From the NCBI RefSeq assembly GCF_040427915.1, contig NZ_JBETXJ010000002.1, forward strand, positions 496,001-560,000: a stretch of 64,000 nt of DNA. Direction: 5' to 3'. The notes under the pieces are model-generated. The model searched no databases, was not told where the DNA came from, and was given only the letters and a program-made list of their open reading frames with translations. Both the position numbers and the translations under genes were made by a program. This document shows positions 57,075 to 60,750 of this stretch, piece after piece. Positions within the stretch are counted from its first letter, which is position 1; every line of letters starts with the position of its first letter. This DNA comes from Gardnerella vaginalis. GTDB taxonomy: Bacteria; Actinomycetota; Actinomycetes; Actinomycetales; Bifidobacteriaceae.

Positions 57075-58907
57075 ATGACCGCAATGGATCCGCAATGGGC
57101 ATTATTGGCCGCTGCTTTAGTGTTTATAATTACGCCAGGGATTGCTCTATTTTATGGCGGTCGCGAACGAGCAACATCTATGGTCAACATGATGATGCTT
57201 TCTGCTGGAGCGATTGCGGTAACAACCATAGTTTGGACGCTATGGGGATGGTCAATGGCTTTCGCTGGAAAAGACATGATTGGCGGCGTTGTGGGCGATC
57301 CTGTGAGTGGTTTGCTGCTACGTGATTCAATGGTTGCAGATCATGGAATTTTTACTTCTATGGACGCGAACACAGGCTTGTCTGGCGGAGGTATTCCAGC
57401 AGCCTTTAGATTAGCGTGCGCTGTTGTAGCAGTTGCTCTTATTACTGGCGCGTTGGCTGGGCGCGTAAAATACGCAATTTGGCTTATATTTGTGGCGGTG
57501 TGGGTCACTTTAGTATTTGCTCCGCTAGCGCATATGGTTTGCGGAGGAGGATTGCTTTCTCCTAATGGCGCAATATCACAAGCTCTAGGAATTCAAGTAC
57601 ATGATTTTGCTGGAGGATCGTTGCTGCACCTGACTGCAGCAGTTTCTGCGCTCGCAATCGTGCTAATTATTGGTGGTCATGCGCACTTCCCGTTAAAGCG
57701 ATTTGTGCTTCATACCAAATCCTCTGCTGTTCAAGATAAGAGTAGTAACAGTAGTAACAATTCTGAGCATAAGGGGAATTTGGTTCGTGCATTGTGGGCT
57801 GACGTTGCGAGATTTAGTAAATTAGAAACTAATACGGGTTCGTCATCTTCTAAGGCAGAAGATTCTAGTGGTTCTGTTGAAGCTGTTAGTGATGTTGCGG
57901 ATAATTCTGTAAATGTTCTAAAACGCCATCCGCATAATGTGCCGTTTGTTGTTCTAGGAATTTTTATTATTTGGTTTGGCTGGCTTGGCTTAATGATTGG
58001 ATCTTCTGTAGGTCTTCCTGGAGTTGCTGGATATGCTTGGGTTTCGTCCACTATTACAGCATCTGCTTCTATGCTTGCTTGGGGTGTTATAGAGCGCTTG
58101 CGTTCAGGCTGTTTTACTGCTGTTGGTGCCGCGTCTGGAATTATGGCGGGTTTGGCTGCTAGCGCTGCCGCTGCAGATGTGATTGCGCCTTTATGGGCAA
58201 TGGTATTAGGTGTTATTGTTGGTGTTGCTACATGCCTTGCAACGCATTCTAAGACTTTTGCGCGTTATGATGGAGCGCTTCACGTTGTGAGTGTGAACGG
58301 CATCGCTGCTCTTATCGGTATTTTTGCAGTGGGATTGTTTGCTGATGGTAGCGGGCTGTTTTGCGTTGGTGACTGGCATCAGCTTATAGCTCAGATTTGT
58401 CTACTTGTAATCACCGTGCTTTATTCCGGTGCAGTTACTGCTTTAGTTGCATTTGGTTTAGAGAAGCTTTTTGGTTGGAGAATATCGGAAGCTAAGGAGC
58501 GTAAGGGTGTTGATTTGGCAGATCAGGGTGAGCGCGCATACGACTTTTCGAGTATTGCTCAAGCTAGAGCTGGAGCTGTTGTAGAAGTTGCTGATTCTGA
58601 AGAAGGGAAAACCCAAGTTGCAGTTCTTACTCCAGTAGCTATTTCTGTTGATGAATCAGTTGTAGATGCAGATGGTGATTTTGTAGATTCAGATAGTGAT
58701 TCAGCGGTTGCTGGCGACAATTCAGCTCATTCTTATGACAATGTTTCTGCTCAATCGCAAGACGAAGTTGAATTGGGCGAAGAGAAGATTGAAACTGAAA
58801 AAGATGGAGAAGAGTCAGAAAATTCAGAAGAAGCTGATTCTAGTTCTGTGGAAAATAAGTCGGATAAATCTAGAAGTAATTCTAAGAAATCTCAAAAAAA
58901 GCAATAA
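57075..58907 (+). CDS. amt: Amt-family ammonium transporter, divergent and extended
   Basis: Polytopic ammonium channel/transporter (610 aa; family usually 400-450). Conserved parts: N-terminal P-G-I-A-L-F-Y-G-G, F-A-P-L-A-H-M-V, and D-F-A-G-G-S-L-L-H with Asp177 and the first pore His185. The position of the second pore histidine (V-H-G in E. coli AmtB) reads V-N-G, with Asn408. A Ser-rich insert of about 75 residues (212-288) interrupts a cytoplasmic loop, and an acidic tail of about 140 residues follows the last helix. No glnK gene follows, contrary to usual. GAGGTGAAAG precedes the ATG. Confidence 0.87.
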   Translation: MTAMDPQWALLAAALVFIITPGIALFYGGRERATSMVNMMMLSAGAIAVTTIVWTLWGWSMAFAGKDMIGGVVGDPVSGLLLRDSMVADHGIFTSMDANTGLSGGGIPAAFRLACAVVAVALITGALAGRVKYAIWLIFVAVWVTLVFAPLAHMVCGGGLLSPNGAISQALGIQVHDFAGGSLLHLTAAVSALAIVLIIGGHAHFPLKRFVLHTKSSAVQDKSSNSSNNSEHKGNLVRALWADVARFSKLETNTGSSSSKAEDSSGSVEAVSDVADNSVNVLKRHPHNVPFVVLGIFIIWFGWLGLMIGSSVGLPGVAGYAWVSSTITASASMLAWGVIERLRSGCFTAVGAASGIMAGLAASAAAADVIAPLWAMVLGVIVGVATCLATHSKTFARYDGALHVVSVNGIAALIGIFAVGLFADGSGLFCVGDWHQLIAQICLLVITVLYSGAVTALVAFGLEKLFGWRISEAKERKGVDLADQGERAYDFSSIAQARAGAVVEVADSEEGKTQVAVLTPVAISVDESVVDADGDFVDSDSDSAVAGDNSAHSYDNVSAQSQDEVELGEEKIETEKDGEESENSEEADSSSVENKSDKSRSNSKKSQKKQ

Positions 58908-59283
58908 AATATCAAAGTTTGTGTAAAGTAATCCCCCATTGGTGTGAATATCTCAAGATTATGACACACACGGGCTAAGCGATGTGGATAAAAACTTTGA
59001 GTTATCCACATTTTAGGCGTGTTGCTGTGCGTATATCAAAAAGTTATACACAAATGGGGGATAACATTGTGGATATCCTGCGGATAACTTTTCCAAAAAT
59101 AATTTTGATTTGCAATTGGCAAATATTTATGATAGCGAAATGGAAAAGGAAAAGTCGCAAGCTTCCGAACATCAGATTTAGAAAAGTAATGTAATAAGTA
59201 ATAAAAATAATAAAAGTAATAAAAATAATAGTTTTATTAAATACTTAATCGTATAAGTTTTTTCGACAGTACAATAGTGCATT
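58908..59283. other. Non-coding spacer with second DnaA-box cluster and A/T-rich tandem repeat
   Basis: Perfect TTATCCACA boxes lie at 58983-58991 (minus) and 59002-59010 (plus). One-mismatch boxes lie at 59044-59052 (plus), 59068-59076 (minus) and 59079-59087 (minus): five in about 105 bases. About 110 bases further is an exact 18-bp A/T-only-but-one tandem repeat (59196-59213 and 59214-59231) in a very A/T-rich tract up to the MATE gene. No gene is supported here. Confidence 0.8.
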
Positions 59284-60675
59284 ATGACAATAGCTAAGAG
59301 CAACACAGTTACCAATAGTCAAGAAGATAAAGAATCTACTATAAACAAAAAAGATTTACTGAAGCATATATTTTCTCTAGCTATTCCTACATTTGGCCAG
59401 CTTATCGCAGAGCCAGCGTTTGTTTTAATAGACACCGCAATAGTAGGTCATTTAGGTAAAACGCAGCTAGCGGGGCTTTCAATAGGATCAACCGTGCTTT
59501 TAACAACAACGGGACTATGCCTGTTTTTGGCGTACAACACCACAAGCCAAGTTGCGAGACTATTAGGTGCTGGGAAAAATCGTCAAGGACTAAGCGTTGG
59601 AATGGACGGATTGTGGCTTGCGCTTGGGCTTGGAGTTGTTTTAACGCTTGTTTTAATGCTGTTTGCGAGTCCGCTTTGCCAAAGCTTTGGCGCAAGCGGC
59701 GAAACGCTTAAAAACGCGATTATTTACACTCAAACTGTTATGCCTGGATTGCCTGCAATGTTGCTAATTTACGCTGCAAATGGCATTTTTAGAGGACTTA
59801 GCAAAGTAAAAATCACGCTTTTTGCTGCAATAAGTGGAGCTGTGCTAAACGCTATTTTAGATATTCTATTTGTGTTCGGAATGAACCTTGGAATTTTTGG
59901 TTCTGGAATAGCAACAATGATAGCGCAATGGTATATGGGAATTGTTTTAACGTTGCCAGCGATTTTTTGGGCAGCGCGCGAAAAAGCAAGACTTATGCCG
60001 CAAGCGCATAGCATACTTAAAAGCGCTGGAAGTGGAATTCCACTGTTTATACGCACATTGGCGTTGCGTGCATGCATGGTGGCAACTGTTGCAGCGGCTG
60101 CGCGACTTGGAACAAACACTTTAGCCGCATACCAAGTTGCAAATTCTTGCTGGAATTTTGTTATGAACATATTAGACGCTATAGGAATTGCAGCTCAAAC
60201 AATAGTCGCTTCTGCGCTTGGAGCAGGATTAAAAACACGTGCTAACATAATCACAAAAATATGCGCACAAGTAGGCGCATTGAGTAGTGTAGTGGTTGGA
60301 TTATTAATGATGCTTGCAGGATGGCTACTATCCCCACTGTTTAGCCCAAACGTAGAAATACAACTTTTAGTTTCAATAGGAATGACGATTCTTGGAATTT
60401 TCTTGCCTCTATCTGGATTTATGTGGGCTTTAGACGGAGTGCTAATCGGAGCTGGAGATCACAAGTATTTGGCCAAATCGTGCTCGATTACAGCTATTGT
60501 GTACCTTGTTGCGATTAGTGCAATGTGCTTAGTAAATATAGCTTTCTGCTCTACTGACATAATTAGAACTGTGTCATTGTGGGTGGCGCTAAACCTTGTA
60601 TACATTGGTGGAAGAGCTTTAGGAAATTCGCATAGAGTTAAAACAGATGATTGGATGAAGTCTGCAATTATGTAA
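59284..60675 (+). CDS. MATE-family multidrug efflux transporter
   Basis: Membrane antiporter (463 aa, 12 helices) of the MATE/DinF type, which exports cationic compounds using Na+ or H+ gradients. Conserved signs: S-L-A-I-P-T-F-G-Q-L near residue 31, the I-D-T-A-I-V-G-H-L-G segment in the first helices, and the G-A-G-D-H repeat near the C-terminus. TACAAT lies 8 bases before the ATG and no ribosome site is seen: candidate leaderless mRNA. Substrate unknown. Confidence 0.88.
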   Translation: MTIAKSNTVTNSQEDKESTINKKDLLKHIFSLAIPTFGQLIAEPAFVLIDTAIVGHLGKTQLAGLSIGSTVLLTTTGLCLFLAYNTTSQVARLLGAGKNRQGLSVGMDGLWLALGLGVVLTLVLMLFASPLCQSFGASGETLKNAIIYTQTVMPGLPAMLLIYAANGIFRGLSKVKITLFAAISGAVLNAILDILFVFGMNLGIFGSGIATMIAQWYMGIVLTLPAIFWAAREKARLMPQAHSILKSAGSGIPLFIRTLALRACMVATVAAAARLGTNTLAAYQVANSCWNFVMNILDAIGIAAQTIVASALGAGLKTRANIITKICAQVGALSSVVVGLLMMLAGWLLSPLFSPNVEIQLLVSIGMTILGIFLPLSGFMWALDGVLIGAGDHKYLAKSCSITAIVYLVAISAMCLVNIAFCSTDIIRTVSLWVALNLVYIGGRALGNSHRVKTDDWMKSAIM

Positions 60676-60706: not shown

Positions 60707-60750
60707 AAAATATGCAACTTGCGACTTGTGTTGGTTTATATCAACTTTTG

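What the first reader, a model, noticed from the sequence alone, without database searches (positions are those of the whole stretch)
58983..59231. Second oriC-like DnaA-box cluster with A/T-rich tandem repeat, about 40 kb from dnaA
Five DnaA boxes (two perfect, three with one mismatch) sit in about 105 bases of a non-coding spacer, followed by an exact 18-bp A/T-rich tandem duplication in a tract that could unwind easily. The density equals that of the real oriC spacers at 16.4-18.8 kb. It might be a DnaA-titration site like E. coli datA, an accessory or ancestral origin, or a DnaA-regulated promoter for the MATE gene and dnaB downstream. Being next to dnaB makes the last idea attractive.
Basis: partly seen in the sequence, partly recalled or inferred. 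Interest (0 to 1): 0.7.

Follow-up and report, generated by a model that had tools for sequence, protein, structure and literature searches.

The report
Conserved DnaA-box cluster near dnaB
A short stretch of DNA packed with predicted binding sites for DnaA, the protein that starts chromosome copying, sits near the gene for the replication helicase in Gardnerella and in nearly all bifidobacterial genomes examined, with fixed spacing between its main sites; it is probably a control site for replication and not a second origin.

Summary
In detail: five DnaA boxes (two perfect, three with one mismatch) in window 58983-59087, far above chance. They belong to a 126-bp element (E, 58963-59088). A model of E matches 112 of 112 genus genomes, 109 strongly, and 8 of 10 other sampled family genomes at E<1e-9. 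Two main boxes lie 42 bp apart in 116 of 118 sequences (template-anchored).

An origin is unlikely: GC skew in the window flips at dnaA, and the A/T repeat was seen in 1 of 11 related loci. In most relatives E lies just upstream of dnaB. Across the class, 29 dnaB loci hold 104 boxes in the 800 bp upstream, against 2 for ftsY. Mycobacterial DnaA binds upstream of dnaB (PMC7738170 passages). E is best read as the bifidobacterial counterpart.

In about a third of loci E is separated from dnaB by 0.75-6 kb or lies on the other side, without lower scores, so E may also act on the DnaA pool. A second cluster lies beside a rhomboid gene.

New member of a known kind; binding in Gardnerella untested.

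The parts
58963..59088 (+). Element E, the conserved DnaA-box array (model R1)
   Evidence: 93.9 bits, the only strong R1 match in the window, next best 17.6; alignment of 14 relatives and 118 relatives
58963..58969 (+). GACACRC motif at the left edge of E (GACACAC here)
   Evidence: GACAC invariant in the 14 aligned sequences; binder unknown
58983..58991 (-). S1, DnaA box TTATCCACA (perfect)
59002..59010 (+). S2, DnaA box TTATCCACA (perfect)
   Evidence: TTATCCACA in 104 of 118 relatives
59014..59022 (-). S3 slot; here TAGGCGTGT on the + strand instead of TGGGGATAA
   Evidence: within 1 mismatch of TTATCCCCA in 59 of 118; ACACGCC-type in at least 39 of 118
59026..59034 (-). S4 slot, degenerate here (TGTGCGTAT on the + strand)
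   Evidence: within 2 mismatches of the slot consensus in 94 of 118
59044..59052 (+). S5, DnaA box TTATACACA, 42 bp after S2
   Evidence: 42-bp spacing in 116 of 118; within 1 mismatch in 117 of 118
59056..59064 (-). S6, variant box TTATCCCCC
   Evidence: TTATCCCCA-type within 1 mismatch in 103 of 118
59068..59076 (-). S7, box ATATCCACA
   Evidence: within 2 mismatches of the slot consensus in 109 of 118
59079..59087 (-). S8, box TTATCCGCA
   Evidence: within 1 mismatch of the slot consensus in 91 of 118
59105..59133 (+). Promoter-like TTGATT-17-TATGAT reading towards MATE; overlaps a conserved TTGC..TGnTA block
   Evidence: consensus scan only, no more promoter-like sites than in shuffles; block conserved in alignments, less clear in some groups
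59196..59231 (+). A/T-rich near-exact 18-bp tandem repeat
   Evidence: among 11 related Gardnerella-type loci, of which up to 230 bp right of E were printed, seen only in the nearest one, L110
57075..58907 (+). amtB (ammonium transporter), left neighbour
   Evidence: PF00909
59284..60675 (+). MATE-family transporter gene, right neighbour
   Evidence: PF01554
60787..62262 (+). dnaB, replicative helicase (start codon chosen by me; the open frame begins at 60712)
   Evidence: PF00772 and PF03796; best class relative outside the family 59% identical

Best explanation
E is a DnaA-binding control site outside oriC, the bifidobacterial counterpart of the DnaA site upstream of dnaB in other Actinomycetes. 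DnaA would fill the two strong boxes (S2 and S5, four helical turns apart) and spread to the weaker oppositely oriented boxes at 11-12 bp steps, forming an ordered oligomer. Most likely this complex has two effects. It holds, and perhaps changes the nucleotide state of, part of the DnaA pool in the origin-proximal part of the chromosome, which delays or times initiation. Where E abuts dnaB it also tunes helicase transcription. In Gardnerella an inversion has placed E in front of MATE-dnaB. Shown here: the boxes, the fixed spacing, the family-wide conservation, the class-wide box enrichment upstream of dnaB, and persistence of E after separation from dnaB. Inferred: DnaA occupancy in Gardnerella, the oligomer, and both effects.
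For: R1 matches in 112 of 112 genus genomes, 109 of them at E<=4e-15. S2-S5 spacing 42 bp in 116 of 118. Class-wide: 104 boxes in the 800 bp upstream of 29 dnaB genes, at least one in 29 of 29 and two or more in 27 of 29, versus 6 downstream, 2 upstream of 29 ftsY genes, and a shuffled mean of 4.75. DnaA binds upstream of dnaB in M. tuberculosis (in vitro) and M. smegmatis (ChIP-seq), and one DnaA variant that bound there less also under-expressed dnaB (PMC7738170 passages). Caulobacter dnaB is listed in the DnaA regulon (PMC8203912 passage). Pool role: E keeps its score when separated from dnaB (median 94.2 adjacent n=77, 95.3 far n=21, 102.4 flipped n=15) although 29 of those 36 dnaB genes have no box within 600 bp upstream. 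A B. subtilis strain lacking six such clusters initiated early (PMC5295017 passage).
Against: No binding data were found here for any bifidobacterium. Separated copies mostly stay within a few kb of dnaB, so they may still serve it or be relics of recent rearrangement; the relatedness of genomes was not corrected for. In one genome (G005) whose canonical E is on another contig than dnaB, a diverged cluster of five boxes remains upstream of dnaB, which favours a dnaB role. For B. [quoted passage not shown]
Confidence: 0.52

Rival explanations
1. E is simply the operator of the dnaB transcription unit (in Gardnerella, of MATE-dnaB): DnaA bound there activates or represses the helicase gene, and there is no separate pool function.
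For: Class-wide position 5' of dnaB, 82 of 104 boxes on the dnaB strand; adjacent divergent dnaB in 77 of 118 loci; lower dnaB expression with a DnaA variant that binds less in M. tuberculosis; G005 keeps a cluster at dnaB although its canonical E is on another contig.
Against: 36 of 118 loci have dnaB 0.75-6 kb away or on the other side. In L169 an AAA-ATPase gene, and in L151 a uracil-DNA-glycosylase-family gene, lies between E and dnaB in the orientation opposite to dnaB. E scores are not lower in such loci. The distance from E to the start of the dnaB alignment (not the start codon) varies from 12 to 594 bp even when adjacent.
Confidence: 0.36
2. E is an accessory or former replication origin with the A/T tract as unwinding element.
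For: Box density similar to oriC; an A/T-rich tandem repeat follows in this genome. For B. longum a genome paper says that the observed oriC lies slightly off the place predicted from genome asymmetry (PMC2430713 passage).
Against: In this window GC skew changes sign at 16-18 kb, at dnaA, not at E. The A/T repeat was seen in only one of 11 related Gardnerella-type loci. E lies 42-418 kb from dnaA on either arm in 24 closed genomes. The 120 bp right of E are only 8 points below locus GC on average, the 120 bp left 7 points.
Confidence: 0.04
3. E is bound mainly by another protein whose site resembles DnaA boxes, with GACACGC as part of its site.
For: GACACGC and the alternative S3 sequence GGCGTGT form an inverted pair in at least 39 of 118 sequences; a TTGC..TGnTA block is also conserved. 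The TTATCCCCA form of slots S3, S6 and S8 is rare among boxes near dnaA (one listed in 19 oriC-region sequences).
Against: The strong slots match the boxes of the same genome's oriC, and the corresponding mycobacterial region is bound by DnaA.
Confidence: 0.05
4. Chance clustering in an A/T-rich spacer.
For: The DNA is 42% GC near here, so boxes are not rare: TTWTNCACA occurs 279 times in the genome, the backwards control pattern 179 times.
Against: Simulation and conservation in 112 of 112 genus genomes; the 118 fetched loci average 60% GC.
Confidence: 0.01

Closest known systems
Mycobacterial DnaA binding region upstream of dnaB (Rv0057 region of M. tuberculosis and its M. smegmatis homologue; PMC7738170, passages)
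   Same: DnaA site upstream of dnaB in an actinobacterium; the class-wide box enrichment links the two.
   Different: E has a fixed 42-bp two-module layout; R1 gave nothing better than E=1.9e-6 in 273 sampled genomes of the order outside the family and was not run on mycobacteria. In Gardnerella a transporter gene intervenes.
Bacillus subtilis DnaA-box clusters outside oriC (Okumura 2012, not held, seen only as summarised in PMC5295017; PMC4447404 passages)
   Same: Several-box clusters outside oriC; the six strongest DnaA regions outside oriC have 4-11 predicted boxes; deletion of six clusters advanced initiation. Four Listeria genomes carry the E core pattern, in L294 upstream of a Sua5 gene (PF01300), apparently the ywlC cluster locus.
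   Different: Different flanking genes; none of the eight strongest B. subtilis regions is named after the helicase gene.
Escherichia coli datA
   Same: Non-coding multi-box locus away from oriC whose position matters (PMC5295017 and PMC5010248 passages); E lies 2.5-16.7% of the chromosome from dnaA.
   Different: datA needs IHF and promotes DnaA-ATP hydrolysis; neither was testable for E. No sequence relation was tested.
Streptomyces coelicolor DnaA-box clusters H69, H24 and D78 (recalled; the search found no paper on them)
   Same: Actinobacterial clusters near oriC reported to restrain initiation (recalled).

Membership tests
DnaA-box cluster outside oriC (B. subtilis type) | Several DnaA boxes close together in non-coding DNA away from oriC, above chance | tested here: met
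DnaA-box cluster outside oriC (B. subtilis type) | Bound by DnaA | not testable with these tools
   No binding data for bifidobacteria found; bound at the corresponding place in mycobacteria
Actinobacterial DnaA site upstream of dnaB | Boxes in the 5' region of dnaB | tested here: inconclusive
   77 of 118 family loci have E adjacent to divergent dnaB; in the 11 Gardnerella-type loci E is upstream of MATE-dnaB with 1.5-1.9 kb between
Actinobacterial DnaA site upstream of dnaB | Enrichment shared across the class | tested here: met
   104 boxes upstream of dnaB versus 2 upstream of ftsY in 29 loci each, the best-scoring of 118 class genomes
datA | IHF-dependent stimulation of DnaA-ATP hydrolysis | not testable with these tools
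   biochemical
datA | Constant relative distance from oriC | tested here: not met
   2.5% to 16.7% of the chromosome, either arm, in 24 closed genomes; these are many species, whereas the datA statement is for E. coli strains
oriC | Location at the GC-skew switch | tested here: not met
   this window only
oriC | Conserved adjacent unwinding element | tested here: not met
   A/T repeat seen in 1 of 11 related loci; flanks not conserved beyond the TTGC block

The most novel reading that the evidence does not exclude
E, together with the cluster beside the rhomboid gene, belongs to a class-wide pair of DnaA control sites near oriC in Actinomycetes. In Bifidobacteriaceae the dnaB-side site has become a fixed-geometry platform that builds a defined DnaA oligomer and controls the DnaA pool independently of dnaB transcription, an actinobacterial equivalent of datA or DARS.
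Probability: 0.3. Interest if true: 0.75.

Novelty: new member of a known kind. Interest (0 to 1): 0.5.

Why it matters
How actinobacteria limit initiation to once per cycle is, to my knowledge, poorly understood. If E controls the DnaA pool or helicase supply, it gives a small, single-locus, deletable target in laboratory bifidobacteria. Its fixed layout would allow the geometry of a DnaA complex outside oriC to be worked out from natural variation. The class-wide comparison also suggests that a mycobacterial binding result is a general property of dnaB upstream regions.

Tried and rejected
Rfam gave no match to the spacer. A 161-bp query around E found no plasmid match. The first look for the cluster upstream of MATE found it in 14 of 30 loci, but loci from minus-strand hits are not turned round, so 13 were read on the wrong side, and 3 plus-strand loci had no cluster within 1.5 kb; replace that count. 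The first class-wide counts (99 boxes at dnaB, 82 at rhomboid) misplaced loci cut by contig ends; one search corrects them (104 and 81), with the same conclusion. A fixed relation to oriC was considered and rejected. A MATE-promoter role was considered: 48 of 118 loci have no MATE within 1.5 kb on that side, and many of those have a gene running towards E instead, so MATE cannot be the constant target. Promoter-like sites were no more numerous than in shuffles, so no dnaB start site could be assigned. Greedy ORF calls in GC-rich loci include spurious antisense frames; of the proteins between E and dnaB only three were checked with Pfam. Okumura 2012 is not held; I rely on review passages.

Full report
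OBSERVATION. The spacer between amtB (57075-58907) and a MATE transporter gene (59284-60675) holds five DnaA boxes within one mismatch of TTATCCACA at 58983, 59002, 59044, 59068 and 59079. In 60 simulated windows no 105-bp stretch held more than two. The genome has 32 perfect boxes. dnaA is 42 kb away, and in the window the GC skew changes sign there, not here. The A/T-rich repeat is a near-exact 18-bp duplication.

A CONSERVED ELEMENT. Aligning the spacer with related loci showed an element about 126 bp long, window 58963-59088. A sequence-only model (R1) built from 14 sequences, the window's own among them, matched 112 of 112 genomes of the genus at E<=0.01; 109 of 112 scored E<=4e-15, the weak ones being G006, G063 and G122. 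Scored again in a small search, G006 still has only a diverged cluster (30 bits) about 1.4 kb upstream of dnaB. In a sample of 297 genomes of the order, 8 of 10 other family members matched at E<1e-9 (G284 only at 1.7e-4, G162 not at all), while outside the family 19 of 273 matched, none better than 1.9e-6 (the counts of 10 and 273 are mine from the kinship column). The sequences used to build the model match by construction.

ANATOMY. On the + strand: GACACGC, then S1(-), S2(+), S3(-), S4(-), S5(+), S6(-), S7(-), S8(-). Relative to S2 the slots S2-S8 begin at 0, 12, 24, 42, 54, 66 and 77; S1 lies most often 17-20 bp to the left. Among 118 relatives the best S2-S5 distance was 42 bp in 116 and 41 in 2; the search for it was anchored on the same template, which favours 42. 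S2 is TTATCCACA in 104 of 118, S5 is within one mismatch in 117, S6 is TTATCCCCA-like in 103. The unit of one forward and two reverse boxes thus occurs twice, four helical turns apart. In the window S3 and S4 are degenerate, so fewer boxes were seen. S3 alternates between TGGGGATAA and a GGCGTGT form that mirrors the GACACGC motif.

CONTEXT. I classified 118 loci (110 genus genomes plus 8 others of the family; the own window and G006 not among them, and G284, without element, dropped) by dnaB position. In 77, a divergent dnaB begins within 0.6 kb of E; in 21, dnaB lies on the same side 0.75-6 kb away; in 15, including the 11 Gardnerella-type loci, dnaB lies on the other side; in 5, dnaB was not in the fetched DNA. 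For those five, dnaB lies on another contig in four and about 9 kb from E in G095; four of the five have no box within 1.5 kb upstream of dnaB, the fifth is G005. The MATE gene is present beside E in 70 of 118 loci (43+14+9+4); elsewhere the right neighbour is often a leftward gene of the c1 or c25 cluster (c1 looks like glnD to me, unchecked). The common arrangement suggests that Gardnerella carries a local inversion of E with MATE.

SEPARATED COPIES. Of the 36 loci with dnaB far or flipped, 29 have no box within 600 bp upstream of dnaB (18 of 21 far, 11 of 15 flipped), while E keeps 4-9 boxes. Median E scores are 94.2 (adjacent), 95.3 (far) and 102.4 (flipped). In L169 an AAA-ATPase gene and in L151 a UDG-family gene lie between E and dnaB in the opposite orientation; in a few far loci no long open frame lies between. 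This argues that E is kept for more than reading dnaB. Against this, G005, whose canonical E lies on another contig than dnaB, has five boxes of a diverged cluster just upstream of dnaB. I did not correct for relatedness.

CLASS-WIDE LINK. In 29 non-own dnaB loci (the best-scoring of 118 class genomes, for which loci were returned), the 800 bp upstream held 104 boxes, at least one in 29 of 29, two or more in 27 and three or more in 21; downstream held 6. The same count at 29 ftsY loci gave 2 upstream and 4 downstream; shuffled dnaB upstream sequence gave a mean of 4.75 and a maximum of 9 in 60 rounds (which corrects). A few flanks are shorter than 800 bp. The ftsY flanks are more GC-rich (0.73 versus 0.65), but the shuffles match composition. 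Literature: in M. tuberculosis the five top DnaA regions in vitro are oriC, rpmH-dnaA, Rv0010c-Rv0011c, Rv0057 upstream of dnaB, and one more, and M. smegmatis ChIP-seq found homologues of the same five (PMC7738170, passages). A review notes dnaB in the Caulobacter DnaA regulon (PMC8203912, passage).

POSITION. In the 24 single-contig genus genomes E lies 42-418 kb from dnaA, 2.5-16.7% of the chromosome (median 11.6%), on the dnaA-downstream side in 15 and the upstream side in 9. Its + strand points towards oriC in 23 of 24, the exception being Gardnerella-like G130. This would follow from dnaB orientation and need not be selected on E.

SECOND CLUSTER. R1 secondary hits led to a dense cluster 3' of a rhomboid gene: 16 of 20 fetched loci contain the rhomboid gene and 12-20 boxes in about 4 kb, the other four have 3-7 boxes and no rhomboid hit. 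The own genome has 4 boxes there at C2:489.6 kb, 23 kb from dnaA (rhomboid PF01694). Of the 30 best genus rhomboid loci, 25 have three or more boxes in the 1.5 kb on the 3' side (my tally with the strands). Among 30 class rhomboid loci the 1.5 kb downstream held 81 boxes against 2 upstream, three or more in 15 of 30. It may correspond to the mycobacterial Rv0010c-Rv0011c site; that Rv0011c is crgA is recalled. The M. tuberculosis paper reports no expression change of those two genes in its dnaA mutants.

PATTERN SCAN. The core pattern over genome contigs returned 80 stretches, possibly a cap: 73 from records named Bifidobacterium, Gardnerella or Bifidobacteriaceae (two of the species, vansinderenii and pongonis, twice), four Listeria, two Ornithinimicrobium (L313 beside a rhomboid gene, PF01694; L344 not read for genes) and one unnamed actinobacterium.

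JUDGEMENT. E is a DnaA-box cluster of a known kind in a new group, with a strict layout and a class-wide positional relation to dnaB. I found no paper describing it in ten searches of open-licence papers, of which I saw listings and the passages cited. The two genome papers that mention bifidobacterial DnaA boxes describe oriC (passages). Occupancy, oligomer and effect are inference.

Noticed in passing
G000:C2:489.6 kb, outside the window (L230:1087-1228): Second DnaA-box cluster 3' of a rhomboid gene: four boxes here, 12-20 in 16 fetched Bifidobacterium loci; also enriched at class rhomboid loci.
   Followed up: partly
G000:C2:701114-701134 (L231:1115-1135): Two perfect DnaA boxes 12 bp apart, shortly after what looks like a tRNA 3' end; not examined further.
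   Followed up: no
58963-58969 and 59016-59021: GACACGC-like motif and, in at least 39 of 118 relatives, a GGCGTGT counterpart in slot S3; binder unknown.
   Followed up: no
59105-59133: Conserved TTGC..TGnTA block right of E, promoter-like, also present in loci without MATE on that side.
   Followed up: partly
L294, L303, L311, L316: Four Listeria genomes carry the same 42-bp core pattern; in L294 it lies upstream of a Sua5 gene, apparently the B. subtilis ywlC cluster locus.
   Followed up: partly
G001, G116, G118, G028 and others: Some genus genomes have 9-14 R1 matches; L248 and L249 show boxes repeated at 40-41 bp steps.
   Followed up: no
G005:C15:20710 and C16:52237 (L465, L469): Two E-like elements in one genome: a canonical one on another contig than dnaB and a diverged one upstream of dnaB.
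   Followed up: partly
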